A DNA stretch of 35,739 nt from contig JALHNX010000029.1 of assembly GCA_022843305.1 (NCBI GenBank), positions 1 to 35,739 of the forward strand. The letters run 5' to 3'. The stretch comes from Pyrinomonadaceae bacterium. Its GTDB lineage: Bacteria; Acidobacteriota; Blastocatellia; Pyrinomonadales; Pyrinomonadaceae. Position numbers and translations under genes: made by a program. Numbering within the stretch: position 1 is the stretch's first letter; each line of letters starts with the position of its first letter. Shown here piece by piece: positions 981 through 35,739 of this stretch. Below the pieces are notes generated by a model. It was not told where the DNA came from, did not search any database, and worked only from the letters and a program-made list of their open reading frames with translations.

Positions 981-1069
981 ATTTTCCCTGCGAAACACAC
1001 GAAATAAACGAAAAAGAAAAAATTATTTTGTTTTATTTTCGTACTTTTCGCGTGTCTCGCAGGCAAAAT
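981..1069. repeat. Imperfect long inverted repeat, CGAAACACACGAA family
   Basis: attttccctgcgaaacacacgaaataaacgaaaa paired with ttttcgtacttttcgcgtgtctcgcaggcaaaat. Confidence 0.8.
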
Positions 1070-1073
1070 GCTT

Positions 1074-1928
1074 TTAAGAATTTGCAGCCAGTTCGGGAAA
1101 ATCCGCGCCTTCCGTGACTTCCGCCCAATCGTCGAAATCCTTTTTCAAAGCATCGAGCCGCAGCCGCGCATTTTTCAAAGCGGCGCGTCCCAAAAGCAGA
1201 TTGAACGGCGGATTTTCCGATTCGACCGCCCCGACAATCGCTTTTGCCGCCCGCACGGGATCGCCCGGCTGATTTCCGCTGTAACCGCGAATCGCCGCCT
1301 GATTCGCGCCGGCGGTTTCCGCGTAATCGGCAATCGTTGACGGCGCTTCGTTTGCCGAACGTCCCGCCCAATCGGTGCGAAATCCCGACGGCTGAACGAC
1401 GATGACTTTTATTCCGAGCGGCGCGACTTCTTTTTGCAGAGCTTCGGAAAAACCGTTGACCGCAAATTTTGTCGCGTTGTAATAGCCGACACCCGGAAAA
1501 CCGACAAAACCGCCGATCGAAGAAATATTAACGATCGTTCCCGAACGCCGTTCGCGCATTTTCGGCAAAACGGCGCGCGTCATTTCTGCCAAACCCCAAA
1601 AATTCGCTTCAAACATCGAACGAACTTCCTGCTCGTCGGATTCTTCGACCGAACCGAAATAACCGAATCCGGCGTTGTTGACCAGAACATCAATCGCGCC
1701 GAAATGCTCTTCGGCTTTGGCGACGGCGTGTGCGACCTGCGCTTTATCGGTTATGTCCAGATTGATCGCCAGCGCGTTTTCCTTATTTATCGCAACCAAA
1801 TCGTCAACTTTGTCCGCATTTCGCGCCGTGACGACCACGCGATAATCATTTTCAAGCAGATGTTTCGCCAATTCGCGTCCGAATCCGGTCGAACAGCCCG
1901 TAATAAACCAAACTTTTTTCTCACTCAT
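1074..1928 (-). CDS. SDR-family oxidoreductase
   Basis: TGCSTGFG, NNAG and YNATK motifs. Confidence 0.93.
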   Translation of the reverse strand: MSEKKVWFITGCSTGFGRELAKHLLENDYRVVVTARNADKVDDLVAINKENALAINLDITDKAQVAHAVAKAEEHFGAIDVLVNNAGFGYFGSVEESDEQEVRSMFEANFWGLAEMTRAVLPKMRERRSGTIVNISSIGGFVGFPGVGYYNATKFAVNGFSEALQKEVAPLGIKVIVVQPSGFRTDWAGRSANEAPSTIADYAETAGANQAAIRGYSGNQPGDPVRAAKAIVGAVESENPPFNLLLGRAALKNARLRLDALKKDFDDWAEVTEGADFPELAANS

Positions 1929-1940
1929 TTTATTCTCCCC

Positions 1941-2849
1941 TTAATCCTTAAAATTTCGATACGAACCGTTTTCAATATCGTCCAAAATCGTCTTGTTGGA
2001 AGTTATTTCCCATTTCAAATCGCGCCGCGCTTTTTCCGCCGAAAGCTGATTGTTGATCGAAAGAAAATCGAACATTTTCCCGAATTGCTCGCGCGCTTTT
2101 TCGGCTGAAATGCTTTTCGCTTTGATATTTAATAAACGCGCAGCGGCTTCGTTCAACGCTTTCATCGAAACGCTTTCCGCCGCAACGTTGTAAAGCCCTT
2201 TCGCCGTGCTTGTTTCGAGTGCCGAAAGATACAAATCCGCCGCGTCTTCGACGTGAACCGCCGAAACTTTGTGTTCGCCCGATTCAACATAATTAGCGGA
2301 ATTTTCCGCCTGTGCCTGTTTAATGATAAACGGCACGAATGAACTTCCCGAACGCCCGTAAACAAACAGCGGCAGACGCAAAACGATGCCGCGAATTCCT
2401 TTTGAAGACAATTGCAAAATATCGCGCTCGGATTCGCCGCGCTCTTTTCGCGGTGAATTTTCCCCGAACGGATAATCTTCGTCCGCTTCGTTCGAGCGCG
2501 TGTCGCCCAAAATCGCCGAACTCGATGTTACGATCAAAGGTTTGTTCGTCTCAGCCAACGCTTCGCCGAAAGTTTTGATAACTTCGCGGTCGAGATTGAC
2601 CGCGTCGTTGTAATCGGAAAAATTATGACTAAACGCCGTATGAATCACGGCATCGGCTTCACGCGCCGCATTTTTCAAAACTTCAAAATCACTCAATTCA
2701 CCGCGAACCGTTTCAATATTTTTCGCATTTAATTTTGCTTCCGAGTCAGAGTTCCGCGCCAAACCGACAATTTTATGTCCTTTTCCTTTTAATTTTTCCG
2801 CGACCACCGAACCGATATAACCGCTTGCACCCGTCAAAAAAATTTTCAT
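1941..2849 (-). CDS. NAD-dependent epimerase/atypical SDR
   Basis: MKIFLTGASGYIGSVVAEKL; GxxGxxG Rossmann motif. Confidence 0.9.
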   Translation of the reverse strand: MKIFLTGASGYIGSVVAEKLKGKGHKIVGLARNSDSEAKLNAKNIETVRGELSDFEVLKNAAREADAVIHTAFSHNFSDYNDAVNLDREVIKTFGEALAETNKPLIVTSSSAILGDTRSNEADEDYPFGENSPRKERGESERDILQLSSKGIRGIVLRLPLFVYGRSGSSFVPFIIKQAQAENSANYVESGEHKVSAVHVEDAADLYLSALETSTAKGLYNVAAESVSMKALNEAAARLLNIKAKSISAEKAREQFGKMFDFLSINNQLSAEKARRDLKWEITSNKTILDDIENGSYRNFKD

Positions 2850-2902
2850 AAATTCGATTTTACAATCGTTTCTTTCGGACTTCTAATCGTAAATTTCGAT
2901 AA

Positions 2903-2936
2903 GCAATTCCGCCAAAAACAGCTTTAGCGGAATTGC
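2903..2936. terminator. Perfect 10-bp stem hairpin, possible terminator
   Basis: GCAATTCCGC ... GCGGAATTGC with 14-nt loop, between minus-strand genes. Confidence 0.55.
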
Positions 2937-2948
2937 GTTAAATCATTA

Positions 2949-3689
2949 TTACCACGGCAATTCTTCGCCGAGATGAATAAATTTGCCGGTGTAGCCGTCC
3001 GCCGGAAGCGTCGCCAAATCAACCGAAGTTTTCGCGCCTTCTTCGAGCGGAATTTCGCCGCTCTTGTTCATATCCGTGACAACCGAACCCGGATGCGCCG
3101 CGTTGACCTTGATCGGCGTGTCCTTCAATTCATACGCCAGATGCACCGCGTAACCGTTAAGCGCGGTTTTCGAAATGTCATAAGCGGGAATTTTGAAATT
3201 GTAGATCGGCGAATTCGGATCGCTGTGTAAATTCAGAGAACCCAACCCGCTCGATAAAAAGACAATTCTGCCCGCGTCCGATTTTTTGAGCAAAGGGATG
3301 AATTCCTGCGTGACGGCGATCGTATTGAAAAAGTTCGTGTCAAAGGTTTTGCGAAAAATATCGAGCGATGTGCGGCTTGCCTGAACCGGCGCATCGTTTT
3401 CAAATTCATCAATCGCAATTCCCGCGTTATTAATCAGAATATCCAGTTTTCCAAAATTTTCTTCGATATATTTCGCCGCCGCCGCGTGCGTTTCCGCATT
3501 GTCAACGTCGAGCAAAATAAACTCGGCATCCAAGCCTTCGTTTTTCAAATTCGATTCGGCTTCTTTTCCTTTTTCCTCGTCGCGCGCGCCGACCAAAACC
3601 TTAATTCCCTGTCCGCCGAGTTGTCTCGCCGTTTCAAACCCGATCCCGCGATTCGCGCCCGTAATTAATGCAATTTTCTTTTCACCCAT
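2949..3689 (-). CDS. SDR-family oxidoreductase
   Basis: TGANRGIG, NNAG and YDISKTALN motifs. Confidence 0.93.
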   Translation of the reverse strand: MGEKKIALITGANRGIGFETARQLGGQGIKVLVGARDEEKGKEAESNLKNEGLDAEFILLDVDNAETHAAAAKYIEENFGKLDILINNAGIAIDEFENDAPVQASRTSLDIFRKTFDTNFFNTIAVTQEFIPLLKKSDAGRIVFLSSGLGSLNLHSDPNSPIYNFKIPAYDISKTALNGYAVHLAYELKDTPIKVNAAHPGSVVTDMNKSGEIPLEEGAKTSVDLATLPADGYTGKFIHLGEELPW

Positions 3690-3717
3690 TTTCTTTTCCC
3701 TCCAATTTTTTTCCGAC

Positions 3718-3918
3718 TCACTTGTCAGTTACCATCACAAACGGCGAAGCGATAAAAGTCAAAAGCCCCAGACTTTCACCGATGCCCGCCGTAAATAATC
3801 CGAAATATAAACCTGCAATCATCATTAAAACCCCGATTATCAATCTGAATTTTTCGACAAATGTCTGCACATTCGTATATCTTTCCATTTCAGCCGTGTA
3901 GTTCATCTTATTTTCCAT
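3718..3918 (-). CDS. Small hypothetical membrane protein
   Basis: 66 aa with two hydrophobic segments; follows the ArsR gene on the same strand. Confidence 0.6.
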   Translation of the reverse strand: MENKMNYTAEMERYTNVQTFVEKFRLIIGVLMMIAGLYFGLFTAGIGESLGLLTFIASPFVMVTDK

Positions 3919-3937
3919 TCCTCGTTTTTAAAAATGC

Positions 3938-3973
3938 TTTTGCATATATACAAGCATCTATATACAATGCAAA
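3938..3973. promoter_or_regulatory. Candidate ArsR operator dyad
   Basis: TTTTGCATATATACAAGCATCTATATACAATGCAAAA, inverted symmetry around TATATA-N8-TATATA. Confidence 0.4.
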
Positions 3974-3978
3974 AATTT

Positions 3979-4269
3979 TTACTTTCCTTCCAATTTCAGA
4001 CGATTTTTCAATTCGGAAATATAATCGTTGATTGTTTCATAATTTACCGCAAAAAACTTGAATTGCCCTTCGCAGTGCGGCGTGATCAGATCGGCTTCGG
4101 TCAGCTCCTTTAAATGATGCGACACGGTCGCCTGCGCGACCGAAACCGTTTCGCAAATATTTCCCGAGCAAATCTTTCCCGCATTGCTTGCCGCGATGGT
4201 CTGCAAAATACCGAATCTTCGCGGGTCAGCCAATGCTTTTGCTGCTTTTTGAAATCGTCTTTCGTCCAT
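3979..4269 (-). CDS. ArsR-family winged-helix transcriptional regulator
   Basis: MDERRFQKAAKALADPRRFGIL ... VAQATVSHHLKELTEADLI; ORF track start extended into the promoter region. Confidence 0.88.
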   Translation of the reverse strand: MDERRFQKAAKALADPRRFGILQTIAASNAGKICSGNICETVSVAQATVSHHLKELTEADLITPHCEGQFKFFAVNYETINDYISELKNRLKLEGK

Positions 4270-4287
4270 AATAACCTCGACAGTTAG

Positions 4288-4311
4288 ATATATTGACATC
4301 CGTCTATATAT
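4288..4311. promoter_or_regulatory. Candidate ArsR autoregulatory operator overlapping promoter
   Basis: ATATATTGACATCCGTCTATATAT: ATATAT-N-GAC-N4-GTC-N-ATATAT dyad; minus-strand TTGACA box overlaps. Confidence 0.45.
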
Positions 4312-4326
4312 TTGTCAAGCCCGAAT

Positions 4327-5112
4327 TCAAATATTTTTTGAATTCAAAACCGCCGCCCGAATTTTTCTTAAACTATGCAGCCAGCGGTCGCGGTTTTCCG
4401 CTTTTTTAACGATGTATTCGGCAACTTCCGGGTGCGGCAGAATCAGAAAAGTTTCTTTCTCCAACGCTTTTATCACGGCATCTGCGCATTCTTCAGCCGA
4501 AATCGCATCAACCGTCAAAAAGCCGTTCGGATTGTTTTCTCCGCCCATAATCAAATCCGTTTTCACGCCCTGCGGACAAAGGCACGAAACGTAAATTCCC
4601 TTTTCGGCAAATTCGATCGCCAGATTTTCCGCCAGCGCAACCGCCGCGTGTTTCGTCGCGGCATACGGCGCGGCAAGCGGATGCGTCAGTAGTCCCGCCG
4701 CCGAAGCCGTAATCAAAAACGCGCCCGCGCCGCGTTCGATCATCGAAGGAAACGCCGCCCGCGCCAGATAAACGTGCGACAGAACATTGATTTCGTAAAT
4801 CTTCTGCCAGACTTCGTTTTCGACTTCCAGAGAACCCTGCGCACCGCCGATTCCGGCATTTGAAGCGATAAAATCAATCCGTCCGCTTTCGTTCAAAATT
4901 TCCGCAATAATCAATTTACAATTCGCTTCGTCCGAAACATCGAGTCTGAAAGCCTTTCCGCTAATAGAAACAGCAACCCGTTCGGCATTTTCAAAATCAA
5001 TGTCGGCAACATAAATTTTCGCCGCGCCGTCCGCGTGAAACCTTTCGCACAAAGCCCTGCCGATGCCGTTCGCGCCGCCGGTTACGAGAATTATCTTGTC
5101 TTTTACATTCAT
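4327..5112 (-). CDS. SDR-family oxidoreductase
   Basis: TGGANGIG and YAATKHA motifs. Confidence 0.93.
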   Translation of the reverse strand: MNVKDKIILVTGGANGIGRALCERFHADGAAKIYVADIDFENAERVAVSISGKAFRLDVSDEANCKLIIAEILNESGRIDFIASNAGIGGAQGSLEVENEVWQKIYEINVLSHVYLARAAFPSMIERGAGAFLITASAAGLLTHPLAAPYAATKHAAVALAENLAIEFAEKGIYVSCLCPQGVKTDLIMGGENNPNGFLTVDAISAEECADAVIKALEKETFLILPHPEVAEYIVKKAENRDRWLHSLRKIRAAVLNSKNI

Positions 5113-5129
5113 AATTTAGCTTTGTCTCA

Positions 5130-5603
5130 TTAAATTTGGTCTGTGTGAACATACTCAATTTTGGTTTCGCCGAAACGTAAATTTACATTTTGCTTCATTT
5201 TCTTTTTTATATAATTTCCCAAACCAAATAATTTCCGATGGCGGTCATAGACTAATAACCATGTCATTCTTTTTTCAAAAATCACGAAATCAACAAGATT
5301 ATTCTGCTCCAAAAATCTCAATATTTGGCTTTTTTCAAATTTATAGAAGTTTATATTTTCTTTAAGTAGCGGAATAACATAATATTCATTTTCAGGAAGA
5401 AAATTACATATTTCGCTTAAAATATCAGGCTCAATATTGAAGCTTATTGATTGATAATCTTTAAAAGAAAAGCCAAAATGCCCATGTTTCGAGAAAGATT
5501 CTTCAGAAGTTAAAAACAAAAAGTTTAAGTATAAATCTAAATCAAAAAAGGTATTCAGCTTTTTTCTAATTTTTGCGATTTCAATTTCATCTTCAATAAT
5601 CAT
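5130..5603 (-). CDS. Hypothetical protein, AT-rich gene
   Basis: 157-aa ORF, no family recognised; locally AT-rich. Confidence 0.6.
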   Translation of the reverse strand: MIIEDEIEIAKIRKKLNTFFDLDLYLNFLFLTSEESFSKHGHFGFSFKDYQSISFNIEPDILSEICNFLPENEYYVIPLLKENINFYKFEKSQILRFLEQNNLVDFVIFEKRMTWLLVYDRHRKLFGLGNYIKKKMKQNVNLRFGETKIEYVHTDQI

Positions 5604-5653
5604 TTCGATTTCGCTAATAATTTTTTGAAATTATTTGTTTTGTTTAATCGTGG

Positions 5654-6613
5654 TTAATTTCCTACTGTCAAAACAACTTTTCCGGTCGTTTTGCGGTTTT
5701 CAATCGCTTCGTGCGCTTCTTTTGCTTGTTCGAGAGGAAACTCAGTAACCTGAATTTTCAAACGTCCCGCGCTTAAGTTTTCGAGCAATTCTTTGGTAAA
5801 AGCGATTCGATTTTGAACAGATTCGTTCATCAGCCAATAGCCGCGAATCGTGTGATTTTTTGCCATCAAACTTAAGACGGAAACTTTGAAATCTTCGCCG
5901 CTTGCCGCGCCGTAAATCCACATCGTGCCGTGTTTGGCGAGAACTTTGAGGTTTTGCGCGACGATTGCGCCGCCGACCATTTCGATGATCCAATCCGCGC
6001 CTTTACCGTCGGTCGCTTTCAAAACTTCGTCCGTCCAATCCGACTCGCTGTAATTTATCGCAAAATCCGCGCCGAGATCGGCAACCAATTGCAATTTTTG
6101 CTCGCTCGAAGCCGTTCCGATAACTTTTAAGCCTTTATGTTTCGCCAACTGCACGAGCAAAGTTCCGACACCGCCCGCCGCCGCGTGAATCAGAATTGTT
6201 TGTCCCGCTTTTGTTTCATTCAAAAGTCCGAGCGCGGTCAAACCCTGCACGAGCAAAGCGGTCGCTTCGCCAAAACCCAGTTCGTCTGGAATTGGCATCG
6301 TCAAAGCGGCTTTGGCGGTCGCAAATTCGGCATAACCGCCGCTCGAAGTCGTCGCCAGAACGCGCTGTCCGACTTTCAAATTCGTGACGTTTTCGCCCAA
6401 ACTTTCAACCGTTCCCGCCGCTTCGTAGCCGAGCGTAAACGGCAGATCGGGTTTTGTCAGATAATTTCCGGCACGCATCATCGTATCGGCGTAATTAATG
6501 CCCGCCGCCGCAACTTTTATCAAAACTTCATCCGCGCTTGGAGTCGGTTTTTCAATTTCTTCGAGCGACAATTTATCCGCTCCGCCAAGTTCATTTACTC
6601 TGATTGCTTTCAT
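5654..6613 (-). CDS. Quinone oxidoreductase / zinc-binding dehydrogenase family (MDR)
   Basis: MKAIRVNELGGADKLSLEEI ... HAAAGGVGTLLVQLAKHKGLKVIGTASS. Confidence 0.92.
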   Translation of the reverse strand: MKAIRVNELGGADKLSLEEIEKPTPSADEVLIKVAAAGINYADTMMRAGNYLTKPDLPFTLGYEAAGTVESLGENVTNLKVGQRVLATTSSGGYAEFATAKAALTMPIPDELGFGEATALLVQGLTALGLLNETKAGQTILIHAAAGGVGTLLVQLAKHKGLKVIGTASSEQKLQLVADLGADFAINYSESDWTDEVLKATDGKGADWIIEMVGGAIVAQNLKVLAKHGTMWIYGAASGEDFKVSVLSLMAKNHTIRGYWLMNESVQNRIAFTKELLENLSAGRLKIQVTEFPLEQAKEAHEAIENRKTTGKVVLTVGN

Positions 6614-6627
6614 AATTTTTCTGTTTC

Positions 6628-6737
6628 TTGCCGCGGATTTCGCGGATTTCGCAGATTAAATCTCAGATATAAATCTGATTTCAAGTTATTTCATCTCAAG
6701 AAAAAATCTGCGTTTATCCGCGTCCATCTGCGGTTAA
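6628..6737. repeat. Inverted repeat, CCGCGGATTT / CCGCAGATGGACGCGGATAAACGCAGAT family
   Basis: Left arm ccgcggatttcgcggatttcgcagatt; right arm is its degenerate reverse complement and overlaps the 3' end of the LLM gene. Confidence 0.75.
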
Positions 6738-7778
6738 TTTCTTCTGATTTTCATTAAAGAGTTCGGCAATGATTTCATACGAACGGAGACGTTTTTGATG
6801 GTCGTAAATCATCGCGTTGACCATTATTTCATCGGCGTTTGTTTGTTCTAAAAATTCTTCCAATTTTCGCTTGACGGTTTCCTTGCTTCCGACAATCGAA
6901 CCGCCGGTGCGCGAAGCAACCAACGCTTTTTCCTGTGCGTTCCAGATCACGTCCATATTTTCAACCGGCGGCGGAATTTTGCCCGGTTTTTGACGGATTA
7001 AATTCAAAAATGATTGCGTTTGCGAAGTCGCCAAAAATTCGGCTTCTTCGTCGGTTTCCGCCGCGACGATGTTCAAAGCGACCATCGCATAAGGTTTCGG
7101 TAAATCGTCCGAAGGCTGAAATGTTTGACGATAAAGTTTGAGCGCGGGCAAAGTGTATTCGGGCGAAAAATGCGCCGCAAACGCGAACGGCAAACCCAAA
7201 ACTCCCGCCAGATGCGCCGAAAAACCGCTCGAACTCAAGAGCCAGATCGGAACATTCAGCCCCGCACCCGGAACTGCCTGCACTTTTTGATTTTCAACCA
7301 CATCTTTAAAGAAAAACCGTAATTCTTCAAGCTGTTCGGGAAATTCTTCGCCGTCATTCGTGAGCGTTCGGCGCAACGCAAGCGTCGCCGGACGATCAGT
7401 TCCGGGCGCACGTCCCAAACCTAAATCAATTCTTCCCGGAAACAAACTTTCGAGCGTTCCGAATTGCTCGGCAATGACAATCGGCGAGTGATTTGAAAGC
7501 ATAATTCCGCCCGAACCGACGCGGATTTTCGTCGTGCCGCCCGCGACATAACCGATCACGACCGAAGTCGCCGCGCTCGCAATTCCGGGCATATTATGAT
7601 GCTCGGCAAGCCAAAATCTTTTATAACCCAGCTTTTCAGCCGTCTGCGCCAAGCTCAAAGAATGACGCAACGCGTCCGATACGGTTTCGCCTTCAAAAAC
7701 CGGCGATAAATCCAAAACCGAAACCGGAATTTTTGTAATACTACTGCTCATAACTTCCCTTTGTTCAAATTCACCCAA
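6714..7778 (-). CDS. LLM class flavin-dependent oxidoreductase (luciferase-like)
   Basis: [13 protein letters not shown] ... [42 protein letters not shown]. Confidence 0.93.
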
Positions 7779-7812
7779 TCAACATTTTTTTCAGAGCAAA
7801 TCCAAAATCCAA

Positions 7813-8716: not shown

Positions 8717-8818
8717 ATTTGCCCACGAAACACACGAAAGAAACGAAAATAAAACAAAAATTTCAAGATGATTTCTAAAAATTTCTTTTCGTATGTTTCG
8801 TGTGTTTCGTGGGCAAAA
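8717..8818. repeat. Long inverted repeat filling the AKR/GPx spacer
   Basis: GCCCACGAAACACACGAAAGAAACGAAAA vs reverse-complement arm GCCCACGAAACACACGAAACATACGAAAA, 27/29 matches. Confidence 0.9.
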
Positions 8819-8820
8819 TC

Positions 8821-10463: not shown

Positions 10464-10543
10464 CAGGTGAAAAAGTGAAAAAGGGTAAAAGTGAAAAAGT
10501 TATCTTCGGCTTTTAATAATTTACTTTTTCACCTTTCGACTTT
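10464..10543. repeat. Inverted repeat with GTGAAAAA tandem words
   Basis: aggtgaaaaagtgaaaaagggtaaaagtgaaaaagtta paired with tactttttcacctttcgacttt. Confidence 0.65.
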
Positions 10544-10910
10544 AAGATGCTCCGTCAACTCTCGATTCAAAATGCAGACTGATCAGAGTGTTCTGATCGT
10601 CCGTAATTTCCAGCACATTTTCGCTTCCGTCCGTGTCGTATTGGACGGCGACTCCGCGCACGCCGGTAATCACGTCGCGCGTTTTTTCGGCGGTACTGTT
10701 CGTGCGGTCAATGCGGATGACTTCGACCGATCTTTGATTGCCGTCAGTTTTCAAACGAATGTCTTCGAGATGTTCTTCACGCGCTTCTGCTTCCGTCGCG
10801 CCGCCGCGCCGGTAAACGTCGAAACGCGCCCGCCGGTTGTTGTTTCGCGCCGCAAATTCGCGCAGAAATTCCGCCCAGTTCGCAGGTTCGATTTGCACAA
10901 TTTCACTCAT
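10542..10910 (-). CDS. Conserved hypothetical protein, DUF5335-like
   Basis: 122 aa beginning MSEIVQIEPANWAEFLREFAARN; family name from memory. Confidence 0.6.
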   Translation of the reverse strand: MSEIVQIEPANWAEFLREFAARNNNRRARFDVYRRGGATEAEAREEHLEDIRLKTDGNQRSVEVIRIDRTNSTAEKTRDVITGVRGVAVQYDTDGSENVLEITDDQNTLISLHFESRVDGAS

Positions 10911-11945: not shown

Positions 11946-12019
11946 TTAACCGCGAAATACGCGAAACAGACTAAAAAAGACAGGAAAATTTTAGCGTATT
12001 TCGCGTATTTCGCGGTTAA
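11946..12019. repeat. Long inverted repeat, ACCGCGAAATACGCGAAA family
   Basis: ttaaccgcgaaatacgcgaaacagactaaaa vs ttttagcgtatttcgcgtatttcgcggttaa, 28/31 paired. Confidence 0.9.
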
Positions 12020-13867: not shown

Positions 13868-14002
13868 TGCCAGTTATGAAAAATAAATTTTATTTGCCGG
13901 CGAAACATACGAATAAAACGAAACAAGATAAAAACATTCTCTGATTTTTCGTATCTTTCGTATGTTTCGCCGGCAAAATCCCTGTTAATTCTTTAACTGG
14001 CA
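13868..14002. repeat. Nested inverted repeats, CGAAACATACGAA family inside TGCCAGTTA...TAACTGGCA
   Basis: TTTGCCGGCGAAACATACGAA / TTCGTATGTTTCGCCGGCAAA with outer TGCCAGTTA / TAACTGGCA, both pairs centred near 13935. Confidence 0.85.
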
Positions 14003-16928: not shown

Positions 16929-16984
16929 AAAGGATGAAGGATGAGAGATGAATTTCAGGATTTTTTTTCATCCCTCATCCCTTA
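16929..16984. repeat. Inverted repeat with GGATGAA heptad words
   Basis: aaaggatgaaggatgagagatgaa / ttcatccctcatcccttt-like arm. Confidence 0.65.
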
Positions 16985-17893: not shown

Positions 17894-18236
17894 CAACGCA
17901 AAGCCGCGAAGATGCAAAGACGCAGAGGATTTCTTGTTAAATATAAAAATTTTTAGGGCTGTTGGAAAGTCGGAACTTGAAAAGATAAGTAGCAGGACAG
18001 ATTTATCATAATCTAAAAAACATCAGTAGAGCGAGCGGTAGCGAGTCTGCTCCGCTGATAGACAATTGATAGTGAGTCAGACTCGCTACCGCTCGCTCTA
18101 CTGATTGCCGACAGATTTAGATTCGTTTATTTCTGTCCGATTGCTTAGATTTTGCCCGAATCGAAATAAATTTCGCGCTGATTCCGACTTTGCAATAACC
18201 GTGTAAAAACTTTGCTCCTTCCGCATCTTTGCGTTA
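17894..18236. repeat. Concentric nested palindrome around a perfect 28-bp inverted repeat
   Basis: Paired blocks AACGCAAAG/TTTGCGTT, AAAGTCGGAA/TTCCGACTTT, GGACAGA/TCTGTCC, ATCTAAA/TTTAGAT and the perfect 28-mer. Confidence 0.8.
18022..18105. repeat. Perfect 28-bp inverted repeat with 28-nt loop
   Basis: ATCAGTAGAGCGAGCGGTAGCGAGTCTG (18022-18049) / CAGACTCGCTACCGCTCGCTCTACTGAT (18078-18105). Confidence 0.97.
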
Positions 18237-19712: not shown

Positions 19713-19804
19713 GTCGTCAGTTGTTCGTTGTTCGTTGCCGATTGAATGTAAGCTAAATTCTAAGTTTGTATTCGACCGGCAACGAACAACGAACAACTGA
19801 CGAC
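19713..19804. repeat. Perfect 28-bp inverted repeat with TTGTTCG heptad words
   Basis: GTCGTCAGTTGTTCGTTGTTCGTTGCCG (19713-19740) / CGGCAACGAACAACGAACAACTGACGAC (19777-19804). Confidence 0.97.
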
Positions 19805-20540: not shown

Positions 20541-20548
20541 AATGTTTT

Positions 20549-20660
20549 TTAACGCAAAGACGCAGAAGACGCAAAGGATTGTGTAAATTATTTGCAAAAG
20601 AGTTGGATTAGTTATTAAAAAATCTTTGCGTCTTCGTAACTTTGCGGCTTTGCGTTAAAT
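20549..20660. repeat. Inverted repeat, TTAACGCAAAGACGCAAAG family
   Basis: ttaacgcaaagacgcagaagacgcaaaggatt / aatctttgcgtcttcgtaactttgcggctttgcgttaa. Confidence 0.85.
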
Positions 20661-21107: not shown

Positions 21108-21338
21108 TTTTGCACTCGCACCTGATTCTTTTGCACTCTTATCCGAAAGTTTTGCACTCTTATCCGAAAGTTTTGCACTCGCACCCGAAAGTTTTGCAAA
21201 GTCATCCCAAAGTTTTGCACTCGCACCCGAAAGTTTTGCAGATGCACCCGAATCTTTTGCAAACCTACCCGAATCTTTTGCAGTTTAACCCGAAAGTTTT
21301 GCAGACGAATCCGAAAGTTTTGCAGACGCACTTCAACG
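21108..21338. repeat. Tandem array of 11 x 21-bp units
   Basis: Consensus TTTTGCAnnnnnanCCgAAag, strict 21-bp period; open on both strands as a heptapeptide repeat. Confidence 0.95.
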
Positions 21339-21374
21339 GTTTTCAGTTTTGCCTTTTGCCTTTTTACTTTTGCC

Positions 21375-22145
21375 TTATTTGATCGCGCCTTCGATTGGAC
21401 TCGACGCTGAGGCGTAGAGACGTTTCGGCATTCTGCCCGACAAATATCCGAGTCTGCCTGCCTGCACCGCAAAGCGCATCGCCGTCGCCATCTGCGCGGC
21501 ATCTTTCGCTTCGGCGATCGCCGTGTTCATCAGGATCGCGTCCGCGCCAAGCTCCATCGCAATCGCCGCGTCGGACGGCACGCCGACACCCGCGTCAACA
21601 ATGATCGTCGCGTCGGGCAATTGCTCGCGCATAATCCGTAAGTTGGAAGGATTCTGCACACCCATTCCCGAACCGATCGGCGCGGCAAGCGGCATCACCG
21701 CCGGACAGCCCGCGTCGAGCAATTTTTTCGCCATTATCAAATCGTCCGTGAAATACGGCAGCACGATAAAGCCTTCCTTTATCAAAACTTTGGCGGCTTC
21801 CAAAGTCTGTTCGTTGTCGGGCAAAAGCGTGATTTTGTCGCCGATAACTTCGAGCTTGATCCAGTCGGTTTCGAGTGCTTCTCTTGCTAATCGCGCTGTC
21901 CGAATCGCGTGTTCGGCATCGTAACAGCCCGCCGTGTTCGGCAGAATCTGCATTTCAGGCGAAAGATAATCGAGAAAAGATTCGGTCGCGCGATCCAAAG
22001 GAACGCGATTGACCGCGACCGTTACCATCTCCGCGCCCGAAGCCTTGTGCGCCGCCTGCATTTCATCGAACGAGCGATATTTTCCCGTCCCGATAATCAG
22101 GCGCGAATTAAATGTTTTTCCCGCTAATGTAAAAGTGTCTGTCAT
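21375..22145 (-). CDS. thiG: Thiazole synthase ThiG
   Basis: [25 protein letters not shown] ... [20 protein letters not shown]. Confidence 0.95.
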
Positions 22146-22150: not shown

Positions 22151-22282
22151 AATTACGAATTACGAATTACGAATTACGAATTATAAGAATAATCTTATCG
22201 AAAAAGCGCGCGCAAAAGAAACGCGGACTAAATTAGAAAATTTAATCCGCAATTCGTAATTCGTAATTTTTAATTCGTAATT
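22151..22282. repeat. Inverted repeat built from AATTACG heptads
   Basis: aattacgaattacgaattacgaattacgaatta / aattcgtaattcgtaatttttaattcgtaatt. Confidence 0.92.
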
Positions 22283-22285
22283 GAA

Positions 22286-24235: not shown

Positions 24236-24366
24236 GGATTTGGGATCGGGGATTTGGGATTTCGGATTTAATAATCCTCGATAATAAAAAGTTTTGGTGA
24301 AAAAAGTTTGAAGGAGAAAGGAATTCAGAAAAAAATCCGAAATCCGAAATCTGAAATCCGAAAATC
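24236..24366. repeat. Inverted repeat with GGGATTT/ATCCGAA heptads in the nuoA-nuoB spacer
   Basis: 34-nt arms, 26/34 paired; 7-bp internal period. Confidence 0.85.
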
Positions 24367-28404: not shown

Positions 28405-28419
28405 AATTTTGTAGAAGTT

Positions 28420-28830: not shown

Positions 28831-28835
28831 AATTT

Positions 28836-29366: not shown

Positions 29367-29367
29367 A

Positions 29368-29532: not shown

Positions 29533-29533
29533 G

Positions 29534-29558
29534 GATTTGAGATTTGAAATCTGAGATC
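29534..29558. repeat. Short self-palindromic heptad element
   Basis: GATTTGAGATTTGAAATCTGAGATC. Confidence 0.6.
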
Positions 29559-29572
29559 ATTGAATTAACAAT

Positions 29573-30079
29573 ATGCGCGCCTTGCTTGTTTGTACGATTT
29601 TTGTTTTTTGTTGTTTGGCAATCGGCTGCAAAGGCTTTGCTTACAGAGTTCCGACGCTAAATATGGCGCCGACTATCAAGCCCGGACAAACTTGTATTGT
29701 AGATCAATACAGCGAGGTTAAAATCCAGCGTTTTGACATTCTGATGTTCAACGCGCCGGAAGCAGCGAAGAAACTAACAAAGGAAAACGGAGACGTTCAA
29801 TATATTTCACGGATAATTGGATTGCCGAACGAAAAGATTGAAATTAAAGACAGCAAAGTATTTATAAATGACAAACTACTGGAAGAATCTTTTGAAAAAA
29901 TCACCGATGACCGTGACAGTCGAAAAGATGTGCCGGCAATGGTAATTCCTGAAAATGAATATTTTGTAATGGGTGATAACCGCCCACAAAGCCTGGATAG
30001 TCGTTATTGGAAAACGGTCAAAAAGGAAGAGATTCTCGGAAAAGTCGTGGAAATTCTTCCAATAGATGTGAAGAAATAG
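29573..30079 (+). CDS. Signal peptidase I-like lipoprotein, predicted catalytically inactive
   Basis: Box-E MGDNRPQSLDSRYW and RIIGLPNEKIEI retained; catalytic Ser position is Asn (TLNMAPTI), Lys position is Ser (YISRIIG); lipobox-like LAIGC. Confidence 0.85.
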   Translation: MRALLVCTIFVFCCLAIGCKGFAYRVPTLNMAPTIKPGQTCIVDQYSEVKIQRFDILMFNAPEAAKKLTKENGDVQYISRIIGLPNEKIEIKDSKVFINDKLLEESFEKITDDRDSRKDVPAMVIPENEYFVMGDNRPQSLDSRYWKTVKKEEILGKVVEILPIDVKK

Positions 30080-30082
30080 TTT

Positions 30083-31393
30083 ATGGAAATCAAAGCAATC
30101 GGATGCGAACCTTTACAGTTAAAGCTAATGCACGTTAAAGACGGGCATACGCTGAAGGTTTATCAGAAACACGGCGGATATAAATCGCTGAAAAAAGCGA
30201 TGGATATGTCGGCGGACGATATTATTAATGAGGTCAAAGCGTCTGCCCTGCGCGGACGCGGCGGCGCGGGATTTCCGACCGGCATGAAATGGTCGTTCGT
30301 GCCGCGCCAATCGCCGAAGCCGAAATATATCGTCTGCAACGCCGACGAATCCGAACCGGGAACGTTCAAAGACCGTTATCTTTTGGAGCGTGACCCGCAC
30401 GCGCTGATCGAAGGAATGCTGATCGCGGCTTTCGCTTTGGGCGCGGAAACCTGCTACATCTATTATCGCGGCGAATATCGTTATTTGATCGACATTATGG
30501 ACCGCGCGATCGAGGAAGCGCGCGCCGCGAACTTCGTCGGCGAAAATATCTTAGGTTCCGGTTTTAAGTGCGAAATTTACACGCACACCGGCGCGGGCGC
30601 GTATATTTGCGGCGAAGAAACCGCGCTTTTATCGAGTCTTGAAGGCTATCGCGGACATCCGCGCATGAAACCGCCGTTTCCGGCTGTCGAGGGCGTTTAC
30701 GCCTGCCCGACGGTCGTCAACAACGTCGAAACTCTGACGAGCGTTCCGCAGATCATCGAAATGGGCGGAATTGCGTGGCGCGATCTCGGTACGGAAAAAT
30801 CGGGCGGCACGAAACTTTGGTCGGTCAGCGGGCACGTCAAAAAACCCGGCGTTTACGAACTTCCGATGGGCTACAAGGATATGGAAAAATTCATCCTTGA
30901 AGACTGCGGCGGAATGCTGCGCGACGATAAAAAGCTGAAAGCGGTGATTCCCGGCGGCTCGTCGGTTTACATCATGAACGCCGAACAGATCATCGGCAAA
31001 AATGTTACGCTCGATTACGAAGGTTTGGTCGAAGGCGGTTCGATGGTCGGCTCGGGCGGATTTATCGTCATGGACGAAACGGTCGACGTGATGGAATCGA
31101 CGAAAAATCTGACCGAATTTTACAAACACGAATCGTGCGGCTGGTGTACGCCGTGCCGCGAAGGAACCGATTGGCTGGTCAAAATTTTCAACCGCATATC
31201 CATCGGCGAAGGTCGTCCCGAAGACGCGCAATTGCTGTTGGACATCTGCGACAACATCGAAGGAAAATCGTTTTGTCCTTTGGGCGACGCGGCAGCATGG
31301 CCGATCCAAAGCGCGATAAAACGATTTCCTGAAGATTTCAAAAAATGGCTTTTTAATAAAGCGAACGGTAACGAAATTACCGCGAATGTATAA
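30083..31393 (+). CDS. nuoF: NADH-quinone oxidoreductase subunit F
   Basis: [17 protein letters not shown] ... [14 protein letters not shown] ... [15 protein letters not shown]. Confidence 0.97.
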
Positions 31394-31398
31394 TAATT

Positions 31399-31465
31399 AG
31401 TTCCAAGTTCCAAGTTTCATGTTCCAAGTCGGAATATTCAACTTGGAACTTGGAACTCGGAACTT
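31399..31465. repeat. Inverted repeat built from GTTCCAA heptads
   Basis: aagttccaagtttcatgttccaagt vs reverse-complement arm aagttccgagttccaagttccaagt, 22/25 paired. Confidence 0.9.
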
Positions 31466-31485
31466 AAAAAAGGAGGTAAATAATT

Positions 31486-31614
31486 ATGGGTAGAGGTGAT
31501 AAAAGAACACGGCGCGGAAAGATTTTCGCAGGAAGCTACGGCAAAACTCGTCCGAAATATAAAAAGAAAGACGCGGCAAACACGAAACCGGCGGAAACAA
31601 AAACGGAAGAATAA
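31486..31614 (+). CDS. 30S ribosomal protein bTHX
   Basis: [42 protein letters not shown], 42 aa; preceded by AAGGAGGT; matches Thx G-K/R-GDK-TRRGKI-GxYGK-RP signature. Confidence 0.92.
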
Positions 31615-31641
31615 ATTTTAGTTTCTTAAAACAAGTTAAAA

Positions 31642-33918
31642 ATGTCAGAACTTATCAAAGTTACGATTAACGAACAGGAATTCGAAGTCGAAAAAGGTGC
31701 GCGTTTGATTGACGTGTGCCATGAAAAAGGCTTCGGAATCCCGTCGTTTTGTTATTACAAAGACCTCGCTTTGCAGGCTTCCTGCCGGATGTGTCTGGTG
31801 CGCATCGAAAAAATGCCGAAGCTCCAGACTTCCTGCACGATCACCTGCACGGACGGGATGACCGTCACGACGCAAAGCGAAGAGATCGAAAAAGCGCAGC
31901 GTTCGATGGGCGAATTTCTGCTCGCAAATCACCCGCTCGACTGTCCGGTTTGCGACCGCGGCGGCGAGTGCGAATTGCAGGAAGTGATTTTCGATTGGGG
32001 CGATGTCGAAGAGCGTTTTACCGAAAAGAAAAACGCGCAGCCCGAAAAATATCTTTCGCCGATTGTCGCCAACGACCCGCAGCGTTGTATCGTCTGCAAA
32101 CGCTGTACAAGAGTTTGCGACGAATGGATGGGCGAAGATGCCATCGAAGCCGGAAATCGCGGTGTGAATACGGTGATCGGCACATACGGCGGCTGGCTCG
32201 GCTGTTCGCAGTGCGGAAACTGCATCGAAGTTTGTCCGACCGGCACGCTTCTTGACGGAACTTACCGGCACGAAACGCGTCCCTGGGAACTCGATCAGAC
32301 GATTTCGACCGATCCGTACGGTTCGGACGGAATGCAGCTTTCAATCGGTTCACGCGGCGGCTTTGTTCATCGAATTGTCGCCCGCGACCGTTATGTTGAC
32401 GGTTTGAACGGCGAATTTCTCGATGTCAAAGCGCGTTTCGGACACGGCTTCATCAATCACGCCGACAGAATCAAAACGCCGCTTATTCGCTATAAAAAAG
32501 GCGGCAAGCTGATTCCCTCGACATGGGACAACGCGATAACTTTTGTTGCCCAGAAATTAAAGGAAAGCGGAAAAAACGTCGGTGTCGTCGCTTCATCGCG
32601 TCTGACGAACGAAGCGATTTTCACCTTAAAAAGATTTGCGACCGAAGTTGCCGGAACTGATAATTACGCGGTTTCCGACGATTACGATCTGTCGGCGGTT
32701 TTCGATAATTTGTCCGCACCTTTGGCGACACATAAAGAAATCCGCTACGCGAAAACGATTCTTTTGATCGGCGGCGAACCCGAAGAGGAACAAACATTTA
32801 CGGCGAAACAGATTCGTCAGGCGGTTCGTAACAGCGGCGCGAAATTGATCGTCGTCAACGATACGCCGATTCGTCTTACCGCGCAGGCATCGCAGTTTTT
32901 ACACGTTAATCCGAAATCTTACGATGCTTTCGCGCTCGCGTTCGCCGATGCTTTGACCGCCGATGCGGCAACGAAACTCGGCATCGAAACTGACGCTTTT
33001 GACGAAATGCTGAAAACGATCGGCGAAACCGAAGGCGATCTGGTCGTCATGTTCGGCGGCGATTTATCAGAGGAAGCGCAGGCGATTCTCGCAAACGCGG
33101 TCGGCGGTTTCGGTTCGGAAACGCGCCGCGCTTTGCTGCATCCTCTGCCGCGTCATAATAATTCGGTCGGCGCGAATGATATGATGGCGGGCAAAAAATC
33201 TTTGGCGGAAGTTTTGAAATCGTCAAAAGCGCTGTTGATCGGCGGAAGTTTGCAGGAAAAAGACGCTAAACTTCTGGCAAATAAAGATTTTGTCGTCGTA
33301 CAGGAACTTTTTGAAACGGCGACGACCGATCACGCGGACGTGGTTTTTCCTGCGGCGAGTTTTGCCGAAGTTGACGGAACTTTTACGAATAATACAGGTT
33401 TCGTGCAGAGAGTCCGGCAGGCGATCGAACCGATTCATCAGGCGAAATCGGATTGGGTAATTACCAGTCTGATCGCCCGCGAAATGGGTGTTGATTTCGG
33501 TTACAGTTTCTCGTCACCGATGGTTTTCAAAGCACTTGCTGACGCGGTTCCGGCTTACGCCGGCTTGCGTTATCCGAACTTAAAGGACGAATCGCGTCCG
33601 GTTCAGGTCAAACACGAAATTGCGGCGAAGCAAGATTTATCGAAAGAAACTGACACGCTGAAAACGCGCGTCGAAAAACTCCCCGAAGAGATCGGCAAGA
33701 TCATGGAAACGCCGCGTGTCGGGCATCTGTTGCATCGCGTGACGACGATGACCGGAAAGACAGAGCAGTTTCATCTGCTTGCCAACGGCAATCCGAAACC
33801 CGAAAATCTTCTCGTCTCGCCGCTCGTGCAGTTTAATTTGGACGGTACGCCGCGCGCGAAAGAAATCGGCGAAGCGGTCGGCGTTGGCGACCGGGTTAAT
33901 TTGAAAACGGATTATTAA
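31642..33918 (+). CDS. nuoG: NADH-quinone oxidoreductase subunit G
   Basis: N-terminal 2Fe-2S domain, CIVCKRCTRVC and CSQCGNCIEVCPTGTL 4Fe-4S motifs, molybdopterin oxidoreductase-like domain. Confidence 0.96.
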   Translation: MSELIKVTINEQEFEVEKGARLIDVCHEKGFGIPSFCYYKDLALQASCRMCLVRIEKMPKLQTSCTITCTDGMTVTTQSEEIEKAQRSMGEFLLANHPLDCPVCDRGGECELQEVIFDWGDVEERFTEKKNAQPEKYLSPIVANDPQRCIVCKRCTRVCDEWMGEDAIEAGNRGVNTVIGTYGGWLGCSQCGNCIEVCPTGTLLDGTYRHETRPWELDQTISTDPYGSDGMQLSIGSRGGFVHRIVARDRYVDGLNGEFLDVKARFGHGFINHADRIKTPLIRYKKGGKLIPSTWDNAITFVAQKLKESGKNVGVVASSRLTNEAIFTLKRFATEVAGTDNYAVSDDYDLSAVFDNLSAPLATHKEIRYAKTILLIGGEPEEEQTFTAKQIRQAVRNSGAKLIVVNDTPIRLTAQASQFLHVNPKSYDAFALAFADALTADAATKLGIETDAFDEMLKTIGETEGDLVVMFGGDLSEEAQAILANAVGGFGSETRRALLHPLPRHNNSVGANDMMAGKKSLAEVLKSSKALLIGGSLQEKDAKLLANKDFVVVQELFETATTDHADVVFPAASFAEVDGTFTNNTGFVQRVRQAIEPIHQAKSDWVITSLIAREMGVDFGYSFSSPMVFKALADAVPAYAGLRYPNLKDESRPVQVKHEIAAKQDLSKETDTLKTRVEKLPEEIGKIMETPRVGHLLHRVTTMTGKTEQFHLLANGNPKPENLLVSPLVQFNLDGTPRAKEIGEAVGVGDRVNLKTDY

Positions 33919-33930
33919 TTTTAGTTCAGT

Positions 33931-35019
33931 ATGGAACAGATTATAAAAACAGCTTTCCCATTTATAGTTTTTTCGGTGGCGATTCTGCTCGCGTTTCAGG
34001 GCGTTTTGATGATCGTCGCCTACACGGTTCTGGCGGAACGCAAGGTTCTCGGCTGGATTCAGGGGCGCATCGGACCGAATCGCGTCGGACCGTGGGGCGT
34101 TTTGCAACCGTTCGCGGATTTGCTGAAATTCATCTTCAAGGAAGACCTCGTTCCCGATAAATCCACGAAGTTCATCTATTTTCTCGCGCCGCTCGTCGCA
34201 TTGACCTGTGCGCTTCTGCCGATCGTCGTTTATCCGTTCGGTCCGGCGATCACGACGATTGACTGGAGTTTTCTGCCTTACGGTTTGGGCGATAACATCA
34301 GACAATTGCCGATGACAATCGCGCAGATCGATGTCGGCGTGTTGTTTGTTCTGGGCGTAACGTCGGTCGGCGTTTACGGCATCGCGCTCGCGGGCTGGTC
34401 GTCGAACAACAAATACAGTTTGATGGGCGGACTTCGCTCGTCGGCGCAGATGATCTCTTACGAATTGGCGATGGGCGCGTCGGTTCTCGGCGTGGTGATG
34501 CTCGCCGGAAGTCTCGATCTGGGCGGAATTATTCAGGCGCAGATAACGTCGCCGTTCCGATGGTATATCATTCCGCAGTTTATCGGTTTTATCGTTTTTC
34601 TGATCGCCGCGTTTGCCGAAACGAACCGTGTGCCGTTCGACCTGCCCGAAGCCGAAACCGAGCTTGTCGCGGGTTTTCATACGGAATACTCGGCACTCAA
34701 ATTCGCGCTGTTTTTTATGGCGGAATATGTCAATATGTTCACGGTTTCCGTGCTGTGCGTAACGCTATTTTTGGGCGGCTGGTATGTTCCGGGCTTGAGC
34801 TACCTGTTTGAACCGGGTTCGATTCCTTACGCGATAGTCAGCCACTTAGCGTTTATCGGTAAAATCTGCGCGTTTCTGTTTTTATATATCTGGGTTCGCG
34901 GAACTTTGCCGCGTTTCCGTTTCGACCAGCTGATGAATTTCGGCTGGAAATTCCTTTTGCCACTCGCGCTGGTAAACGTAATTTTGACGATTATCGTCGT
35001 TTATTTTTTGAATAGATAA
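33931..35019 (+). CDS. nuoH: NADH-quinone oxidoreductase subunit H
   Basis: [38 protein letters not shown] ... [26 protein letters not shown]. Confidence 0.97.
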
Positions 35020-35089
35020 AGTGAGTGGAAAGTTGTGAGTGGAGAGTAAAGAGAAAATACTCTCCACTCTTTACTCTCCACTCTCCACT
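35020..35089. repeat. Inverted repeat built from CTCTCCA heptads
   Basis: Perfect 17-bp core gagtggagagtaaagag (35037-35053) / ctctttactctccactc (35067-35083). Confidence 0.92.
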
Positions 35090-35095
35090 AAAACA

Positions 35096-35680
35096 ATGGC
35101 AACAACTGTTTTATTTTTCATTTTCGCCGGACTCGCTATCGGCTGTGCGCTTTCGATGGTTTATCATCGCAACCCGCTTTACAGCGCGGTTTCGCTGATC
35201 GGTGTTTTTGTCGCGCTGTCGTGCATTTACGTCACGCTCGCCGCGCCGTTTATCGCCGCCGTGCAGATTTTGATCTACGCGGGCGCGATTATGGTTTTGG
35301 TGATCTTCGTCATTATGCTCTTAAATCTCGACGAGGAAAAACCGTATCGAAGGCTGAATTACCTTTACGCGCTCGGTGGGTTTCTCGGGATCGTTTTATT
35401 GGCGCAGACGCTTTTCATTTTCGTCGCCGTCAACAAAGCGCCGAAAGCCGCTGTCAATACCGATGAAACGGTCGGGAAAACCCTCAGCATCGGCGCAAGT
35501 ATGTATTCCGAATATCTTTTGCCCGTCGAAATGGTCGGCGTTTTACTGCTCATGGCGATTATCGGCGGCGTCATCTTAGTGCGCCGTTTGAGCCAGCCGG
35601 AATTGAAACTGGTCGTTGACAACGAATTGGAACGCCGCAACGAAGCGGACGAAAAAGACGATTACCGAATTGCTCTTTAG
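35096..35680 (+). CDS. nuoJ: NADH-quinone oxidoreductase subunit J
   Basis: VYHRNPLYSAVSLIGVFVALSCIYVTLAAPFIAAVQILIYAGAIMVLVIFVIMLLNLDEE; start moved to MATTVLFF. Confidence 0.95.
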   Translation: MATTVLFFIFAGLAIGCALSMVYHRNPLYSAVSLIGVFVALSCIYVTLAAPFIAAVQILIYAGAIMVLVIFVIMLLNLDEEKPYRRLNYLYALGGFLGIVLLAQTLFIFVAVNKAPKAAVNTDETVGKTLSIGASMYSEYLLPVEMVGVLLLMAIIGGVILVRRLSQPELKLVVDNELERRNEADEKDDYRIAL

Positions 35681-35739
35681 CGAGTCGAGAGTCGAGAGTC
35701 GAGAGTCGAGAGTCAAAAACCTCTTAACTCTCGACTCTC
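35681..35739. repeat. GAGTCGA heptad array with inverted partner, runs off window
   Basis: gagtcgagagtcgagagtcgagagtcgagagtc ... aactctcgactctc. Confidence 0.9.

What the first reader, a model, noticed from the sequence alone, without database searches (positions are those of the whole stretch)
981..35739. Intergenic spacers are occupied by long inverted repeats built from degenerate ~7-bp words, with a different word at nearly every locus
Seen directly: about 17 spacers carry paired arms of roughly 17-35 nt. Arms often have a 7-bp internal period: AATTACG (22151), GGATTTG/ATCCGAA (24236), GTTCCAA (31399), CTCTCCA (35020), GAGTCGA (23614 and 35681), TTGTTCG (19713), GGATGAA (16929). In several cases the arms nearly touch both flanking genes, e.g. 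11946-12019 between genes ending 12024 and starting 11937, and 35020-35089 between nuoH (ends 35019) and nuoJ (starts 35096). The word changes but the layout is constant, which argues for a generating process such as slippage expansion plus inversion, or for selection on structure rather than sequence. Heptanucleotide STRR repeats are described in filamentous cyanobacteria; the pairing into spacer-filling hairpins with locus-specific words is what looks distinctive here. I do not know of an established name for it.
Basis: partly seen in the sequence, partly recalled or inferred. Interest (0 to 1): 0.85.

Follow-up and report, generated by a model that had tools for sequence, protein, structure and literature searches.

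The report
Heptamer-armed hairpins linked to four-helix-bundle genes
The gaps between this soil bacterium's genes are full of DNA hairpins built from repeated 7-letter words, and the same words, in the same orientation, frame a small selfish-looking gene (a four-helix-bundle protein known from ribosomal-RNA intervening sequences), as similar arms do in several other bacterial phyla, which points to an unrecognised kind of small mobile element.

Summary
In 1.21 Mb of this Pyrinomonadaceae (Acidobacteriota) genome, 256 of 695 spacers carry inverted arms, against about 1 in shuffled spacers. Period-7 arrays number 192 against 0, and 84% are paired. "A different word at every locus" is only partly right: words recur as dispersed families. 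The window also mixes in REPINs and a 9-mer family.

Arms are shared between loci but loops are not, and orthologous spacers carry hairpins with different words. The explanation found: genes for the four-helix-bundle S23/IVP protein (PF05635, known from 23S rRNA intervening sequences) are bracketed by the same kind of arms: 10/13 copies here against 2/859 genes, and 18/20 plasmid copies from other phyla. Four plasmid empty sites show arms plus gene arriving as one block, replacing 25-328 nt without target duplication. 52/117 period-7/8 hairpins match this genome's own gene-bracketing arms in sequence and polarity (opposite polarity 10, foreign arms 6). Two relatives without the gene have no heptamer arrays in about 300 kb.

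Best reading: the hairpins are non-autonomous partners of a mobile IVS-like element. Mobilisation by the protein is inferred, not shown.

The parts
22151..22183 (+). left heptamer arm AATTACG x4.7, thiS-thiG spacer
   Evidence: matches the perfect 35-nt arms of the own-genome four-helix-bundle element L218 (score 27, shuffled max 15)
22243..22284 (-). right (inverted) AATTACG arm of the same hairpin; the terminator-like core between the arms is conserved in relatives that have other words or no arms
35021..35053 (+). left arm GAGTGGA/GAGTGGAAAGTT, spacer between nuoH and the next nuo gene
   Evidence: orthologous spacers carry other words
35058..35089 (-). right inverted arm (inward AGTGGAG), matches own element L215
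35682..35714 (+). GAGTCGA x4.7 array at the window end; inverted partner lies just past the window across a 10-N scaffold gap, before nuoK
   Evidence: matches own element L214 (where shuffled copies of this array score as high)
31399..31429 (+). left arm AGTTCCA, spacer upstream of a small ORF and nuoG
   Evidence: absent at the orthologous site in L082
31440..31465 (-). right inverted AGTTCCA arm
24236..24269 (+). left arm GGATTTG/GGATTTC
24333..24363 (-). right inverted arm
19713..19754 (+). left arm with TTGTTCG/GTCAGTT units
   Evidence: orthologous spacer in L077 carries a TTGGTTT hairpin instead
19763..19804 (-). right inverted arm
16930..16952 (+). short GGATGAA arm
16968..16982 (-). 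its short inverted partner TCATCCC
10467..10500 (+). octamer arm GTGAAAAA, matches own element L216 (score 29 of 34); inverted partner near 10520-10548
21347..21376 (-). unpaired array, inward AAGGCAAAAGG, matches own element L224
23613..23639 (-). unpaired GAGTCGA array, matches own elements L214/L215
22505..22531 (-). unpaired ATTTTGG array at the upstream gene's stop codon; L077 has a different-word hairpin here
8718..8817 (.). 9-mer family hairpin GCCCACGAAACACACGAAAG
   Evidence: no cognate four-helix-bundle element found
981..1069 (.). 9-mer family hairpin
11946..12019 (.). 9-mer family hairpin (CGCGAAATA)
13893..13977 (.). 9-mer family hairpin
18022..18105 (.). REPIN (two inverted GTAG-tagged REPs), a different known class
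   Evidence: REPINs flank RAYT genes in this genome
15387..15458 (.). REPIN-like pair AAAGTACGACAAACTTCAGTTTGT (tentative class)
20548..20659 (.). pair of CGCAAAGACGCA-type arms, perfect in L077

Best explanation
The heptamer hairpins are the ORF-less members of a dispersed element family. Its gene-bearing form is a small four-helix-bundle protein gene (S23/IVP, PF05635, the protein of 23S rRNA intervening sequences), framed by two inverted arms of about 4-5 tandem copies of a 7-nt (sometimes 8-10-nt) word. SHOWN by sequence: (1) such arms bracket most PF05635 genes in this genome, in its relatives and on plasmids of other phyla, each lineage with its own word; (2) arms plus gene are present or absent as one block, replacing a variable stretch of target with no target-site duplication; (3) hairpins without the gene share arm sequence and inward polarity with the gene-bearing copies of the same genome; (4) the two arms of one element are kept identical while words change between genomes. 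INFERRED: the protein (a pentameric ring in solved relatives) recognises the heptad arrays and helps copy or insert arm-bounded DNA, and arm-to-arm copying (fold-back template switching) keeps arms paired. The spacer hairpins are then MITE-like passengers, tolerated next to stop codons.
For: Bracketing in the own genome: 10/13 PF05635 genes score >=16 (e.g. perfect 43-nt and 35-nt arms) vs 2/859 genes, one of those two a RAYT. Own genome plus relatives, 33 loci with full flanks: 22/33 score >=16 vs 2/45 neighbouring genes, Fisher p 2.5e-9; all 29 arms scoring >=12 are periodic, 23 with period 7. Plasmids: 18/20 score >=14, covering Cyanobacteria, Chloroflexota, Bacteroidota and Bacillota; the Spirochaetota copy scores 13. 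Cognate words: 52/117 hairpins match own-genome element arms inward, vs 10 in opposite polarity, 6 for foreign elements, 2 shuffled. Window 22151/22243 matches L218. Empty sites: four loci where the new DNA equals arms plus gene, replacing about 25, 188, 328 and 61 nt. Protein similarity tracks arm similarity (Mantel rho 0.12, p 0.008). Two relatives without PF05635: 0 real heptamer arrays in about 300 kb vs about 41 expected. Decayed gene with perfect arms: L021. Same insertion in two Nostoc strains with arms of 34 vs 27 nt, both arms changed together. Literature: the Coxiella 23S IVS has a 28-bp terminal inverted repeat, an S23p ORF and three tandem heptamers GACAGAT (PMC4990558).
Against: 65/117 period-7/8 hairpins have no matching gene-bearing copy found in this genome; in the window this includes AGTTCCA and the 19713 word. 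Copy number of PF05635 does not correlate with array density over 49 genomes (rho 0.17, p 0.25; small samples per genome). Loops of hairpins show no shared remnants of the gene, so derivation by simple internal deletion is not supported. At thiS-thiG the arms flank a pre-existing conserved core, which unit insertion does not explain. No nuclease or polymerase is encoded by the element, and this genome has no detectable reverse transcriptase. Nearly identical proteins can have different words. The two gene-less genomes may differ for other, e.g. ecological, reasons.
Confidence: 0.68

Rival explanations
1. Purely mutational: heptamers expand by polymerase slippage and are copied to the other side of the spacer by fold-back template switching, with no dedicated protein. 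The four-helix-bundle gene is a passenger that tends to land in such hairpins.
For: Arms are exact copies of each other including irregular units. Word changes stay paired. Arms flank a pre-existing core at thiS-thiG. Unpaired arrays exist (30/192). No reverse transcriptase.
Against: In four empty-site comparisons arms and gene are gained together, not gene into an existing hairpin. Hairpins share words and polarity with the own genome's gene-bearing copies and not with foreign ones. 31-35-nt irregular arms recur at unrelated loci. Heptamers are absent in gene-less relatives.
Confidence: 0.17
2. Selection on RNA or DNA structure: the hairpins act as transcription terminators, mRNA 3'-end protectors or insulators, and the words are incidental.
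For: Arms start a median 7 nt after the upstream stop codon. Heptamer hairpins are about half as frequent in divergent spacers (9/105 vs 103/590, p 0.02).
Against: No excess of G.U over A.C mismatches on the sense strand (80 vs 91). Only 17% have a T run >=4 after the arm. Pairs up to 650 nt apart. Hairpins are mostly not shared even between close relatives (both 6, one 23, none 84 at >=85% identity). Location bias is also expected from purging of harmful insertions.
Confidence: 0.1
3. REPIN/RAYT-type system: arms are REPs moved by a Y1 (HUH) transposase.
For: The genome holds 10 Y1_Tnp matches, most of the eight inspected lying beside inverted REP-like repeats; REPINs such as 18022-18105 are present.
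Against: Heptamer arms lack the GTAG/GGAG-tagged small palindrome of REPs and do not frame the inspected RAYT genes. They frame PF05635 genes instead. REPIN loops are better conserved than heptamer-hairpin loops in the largest REP family.
Confidence: 0.04

Closest known systems
23S rRNA intervening sequences (IVS) with S23p/IVP ORF, e.g. Coxiella (PMC4990558)
   Same: Inverted-repeat stem framing a PF05635 ORF; the Coxiella IVS even has three tandem heptamers (GACAGAT) at the 5' end; described as selfish, possibly the remnant of a mobile element.
   Different: Here the elements lie between protein genes (or break one), in up to 17 gene-bearing copies per genome plus very many ORF-less hairpins, with a different word per lineage. 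RNase III excision not tested.
REPIN / RAYT (PMC2817692, PMC3116915, PMC3733652)
   Same: Dispersed inverted pairs in spacers, with a cognate small gene framed by the same repeats.
   Different: Different protein (four-helix bundle, not Y1 transposase), arms of tandem 7-mers without the REP palindrome or GTAG tag, word changes quickly.
Heptameric SSRs of Xanthomonas and Nostoc (GGGAATC; PMC4692102)
   Same: Intergenic tandem heptamers, 70-75 convergent inverted pairs per Xanthomonas genome, few in divergent spacers.
   Different: One G-rich word type studied as G-quadruplexes; authors found no general association with mobile elements; no link to S23p was made.
STRR repeats of filamentous cyanobacteria
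   Same: Tandem heptamers; two hairpins from this genome, searched against 72,556 plasmids, find cyanobacterial plasmids only.
   Different: Usually described as direct repeats without pairing or a cognate gene (own knowledge).
TAACTGA direct repeats of Beggiatoaceae (PMC4679880)
   Same: Abundant intergenic heptamers.
   Different: Direct, upstream of start codons, only one inverted case among 170 sets.

Membership tests
23S rRNA IVS element | PF05635 (S23p/IVP) ORF inside inverted repeats | tested here: met
   Gene-bearing copies. Not met by the ORF-less window hairpins themselves.
23S rRNA IVS element | located inside a 23S rRNA gene | tested here: not met
   The copies whose surroundings were examined lie in spacers or in protein genes.
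23S rRNA IVS element | excised from the transcript by RNase III | not testable with these tools
   needs RNA data
REPIN / RAYT | cognate Y1 transposase gene framed by the same repeats | tested here: not met
   None of the 8 inspected Y1_Tnp loci is framed by heptamer arms; those with repeats carry REPIN-like ones.
REPIN / RAYT | REP unit = small palindrome with GTAG/GGAG tag | tested here: not met
   Heptamer arms are tandem 7-mers. Met by 18022-18105, which is a REPIN.
Classical MITE of a DDE transposon | terminal inverted repeats with target-site duplication | tested here: not met
   Filled vs empty plasmid sites show no duplication and 25-328 nt of target replaced.
Classical MITE of a DDE transposon | internal sequence shared between copies | tested here: not met
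   Loops between same-word hairpins are barely above shuffled (0.40 vs 0.34).
Intrinsic terminator | G+C-rich stem, short loop and T run downstream | tested here: not met
   Loop median 21 nt; T run >=4 in 17%.
Heptameric SSR / STRR | tandem heptamers over-represented in intergenic DNA | tested here: met
   192 vs 0 shuffled

The most novel reading that the evidence does not exclude
A widespread class of bacterial mobile element with no recognisable nuclease or polymerase: a four-helix-bundle ring protein plus inverted tandem-heptad arms. The word is not conserved but re-written in both arms together, and the element inserts by replacing target DNA. The class would underlie 23S rRNA intervening sequences, paired heptamer repeats in Xanthomonas and cyanobacteria, and spacer-filling hairpins in Acidobacteriota.
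Probability: 0.5. Interest if true: 0.93.

Novelty: new variant of a known kind. Interest (0 to 1): 0.86.

Why it matters
Two long-standing loose ends would meet: why heptanucleotide repeats are over-abundant in so many bacterial genomes, and what the S23/IVP four-helix-bundle protein of rRNA intervening sequences is for. It gives a cheap genome test (are PF05635 genes framed by periodic inverted arms?) and a bench test (does the protein bind its own word?). It also offers a simple reason why this gene turns up beside CRISPR and restriction genes: it is inserted there.

Tried and rejected
RNA-structure selection was tested by the G.U/A.C asymmetry and not supported. A shared loop (unit MITE with fixed interior) was tested and rejected. 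A copy-number correlation across 49 genomes was tested and was not significant. tRNA or Rfam content gave nothing. The reverse-transcriptase (DGR-like) idea: PF05635 resembles the DGR protein Avd (PMC10053308), but no RT was found in this genome. Orthologous 'hairpin vs none' spacers were too diverged to define junctions in general, so plasmid empty sites were used. One phage-collection query was mis-framed; a corrected one gave only two unannotated phages from human faecal samples.
Full report
WHAT WAS CLAIMED. Organism: the ThiG protein is 96% identical to an uncultured acidobacterial MAG and about 90% to many Pyrinomonadaceae MAGs; the window is contig C29 of a 5.7-Mb MAG in 322 contigs.

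IS IT REAL. Yes. I took 1.21 Mb of the same genome, called genes with a simple coding-potential caller, and scored ungapped inverted repeats in 695 spacers. At score >=14, 256 spacers had one, against 1.1 on average in dinucleotide shuffles and 1 in coding controls. Spacer autocorrelation peaks at 7, 14 and 21. Period-7 arrays: 192 vs 0 shuffled; period 8: 30 vs 2; period 9: 17 vs 1; 162 of the 192 are in inverted pairs. In the window I count 12 strong and 2 weak paired spacers. The window set is mixed: heptamer pairs, one octamer pair (10467), a 9-mer family (981, 8718, 11946, 13893), at least one REPIN (18022) and a CGCAAAGACGCA pair (20548).

WORDS ARE FAMILIES, LOOPS ARE NOT. AATTACG occurs at about 25 dispersed loci, with 0 matches for the reversed control. 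Copies share irregular arms such as AATTACG-AATTTCA-AATTACG-AATTACG-AAT, and the right arm is often its exact reverse complement. Loops of same-word hairpins are unrelated (0.40 vs 0.34 shuffled for the AATTACG family); the largest REP family is clearly above its shuffle (0.29 vs 0.12). Orthologous spacers carry hairpins with different words. thiS-thiG has AATTACG, AATTAAG, AGATTCC, GATTTGG or one-sided AAGGATA in different relatives, around a conserved terminator-like core that some relatives have without arms. The spacer after nuoH has GAGTGGA here, GAGTGAC in G008, GAGCGAT in G001 and AATTAAA in G002. Over all orthologous pairs with hairpins in both, arms match their partner (about 0.86) but not the orthologue (0.25-0.50), and hairpins are usually not shared: 6 both, 23 one, 84 none at >=85% flank identity.

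NOT AN RNA-SELECTED STRUCTURE. In tandem spacers G.U and A.C arm mismatches are equal (80 vs 91); T runs follow 17% of hairpins; heptamer hairpins are somewhat depleted in divergent spacers (9/105 vs 103/590, p 0.02). They begin a median of 7 nt after a stop codon.

THE KEY STEP. Two apparently unpaired arrays turned out to be the two ends of long spacers (L021, L065) holding an uncalled small gene, a four-helix-bundle S23/IVP protein. All 13 PF05635 matches of the genome were then examined: ten are framed by inverted arms of score >=16, mostly heptameric, for example AGTCGAGAGTCAAGAGTCGAGAGTCA (L214), a perfect 43-mer with TAATTGATA-type units (L217) and a perfect 35-mer AGTAAATTACGAATTTCAAATTACGAATTACGAAT (L218), the consensus of the AATTACG hairpin family in the window. 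Control: 2/859 genes, one a RAYT with its REPINs. In 33 own and relative loci with full flanks, 22 reach >=16 vs 2/45 neighbouring genes (p 2.5e-9), and all 29 arms with score >=12 are periodic: 23 of period 7, the rest 8-10. On plasmids, 18/20 copies score >=14, among them Nostoc, Anabaena, Aulosira, Planktothrix, Gloeocapsa, Euhalothece, Dolichospermum, Chlorohelix, Bernardetia and Monoglobus, many perfect; Treponema scores 13.

COGNATE WORDS. 52/117 period-7/8 hairpins of the sampled genome match the arms of its own gene-bearing copies in inward polarity; 10 match in opposite polarity, 6 match arms from other genomes, 2 match shuffled arms. Two of the 13 reference arms are not strict brackets of an intact gene (L221, a hairpin just upstream of its gene; L021, a decayed gene) and account for 9 of the 52. 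In the window 22151/22243, 10467, 21347, 23613, 35059 and 35682 have such partners (the 35682 match is not above its own shuffles). Similar proteins have more similar arms (Mantel rho 0.12, p 0.008), but words change faster than proteins.

MOBILITY. Related plasmids without the element give empty sites. Aulosira: 502 nt replaces about 25 nt. Nostoc C052: 422 nt replaces 188 nt, right flank 100% identical. Nostoc N6: 466 nt replaces 328 nt of a DNA cytosine methyltransferase gene. Nostoc TCL26-01, between cas2 and cas1: about 586 nt replaces about 61 nt. The new DNA runs from about outer arm end to outer arm end; no target duplication is seen. The N6 and C057 copies are the same insertion with 34- and 27-nt arms: both arms differ by one heptad. 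L021 is a decayed gene with perfect 30-nt arms and a REPIN inside.

GENE-LESS RELATIVES. Two of 50 relatives lack PF05635; about 300 kb from them contains no real heptamer array (3 listed are N runs), against about 41 expected. Copy number otherwise does not correlate with density.

MECHANISM. Most likely the S23/IVP protein acts on arm-bounded DNA or RNA. A close solved relative, 2rld, has five chains, and PMC4990558 cites a pentameric ring for the Xanthomonas protein. Arms of 4-5 heptads would suit one subunit per heptad: a guess. Copying between arms (fold-back template switching) would keep them paired while words drift. What cuts and copies is unknown; no reverse transcriptase was found here.

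KNOWN OR NEW. Known pieces: IVS elements with S23p and, in Coxiella, tandem heptamers and a 28-bp inverted repeat (PMC4990558); convergent heptamer pairs in Xanthomonas, not linked to mobile elements (PMC4692102); TAACTGA repeats (PMC4679880); REPIN/RAYT (PMC2817692, PMC3116915). I found no paper in the held library joining heptamer arms to S23/IVP genes outside rRNA; subscription journals are largely missing, so this is not proof of novelty. PMC10910872 lists 23S rRNA IVP among genes drawn at CRISPR-linked loci, consistent with the insertions seen between cas2 and cas1.

CAVEATS. MAG data, home-made gene calls, one genome for the cognate test, two gene-less genomes, and about half of the hairpins without a known gene-bearing partner.

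Noticed in passing
L157, L158, L159, L160, L162, L163: Y1_Tnp (RAYT-like) genes of this genome lie beside inverted REP-like repeats, with several distinct REP families (e.g. GGAACGCCGTCATCCTGACGGCA on both sides of L162's gene).
   Followed up: partly
L259, L261 (plasmids): Four-helix-bundle element sits between cas2 and cas1 in Anabaena and Nostoc; a Nostoc plasmid without it (L279) has cas2 and cas1 adjacent.
   Followed up: yes
L266, L267 vs L278, L280: A four-helix-bundle element interrupts and partly replaces a plasmid DNA cytosine methyltransferase gene.
   Followed up: yes
window 21108-21331: About 10.7 copies of a 21-bp tandem repeat TTTTGCACTCGCACCCGAAAG (63-bp higher order) next to thiG; unexplained.
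   Followed up: no
L038:6627-6782: Nested hairpins: an outer GGATTTC-word pair encloses an inner TCATTTA-word pair, suggesting insertion of one element into another.
   Followed up: no
L086, L087, L102, L107, L132, L151 (thiS-thiG spacers): Other relatives carry inverted CACAGAGGACACAGAG-type arms (longer period) at the same site, possibly the same kind of element with another unit length.
   Followed up: no
L165, just past window position 35739: A 10-N scaffold gap lies inside the heptamer hairpin upstream of nuoK; such hairpins probably break MAG assemblies.
   Followed up: partly
L065:16734-17154 and L021:5181-5846: Gene-bearing copies with a stop codon or a REPIN insertion in the gene but perfect arms: arms outlive the gene.
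   Followed up: yes
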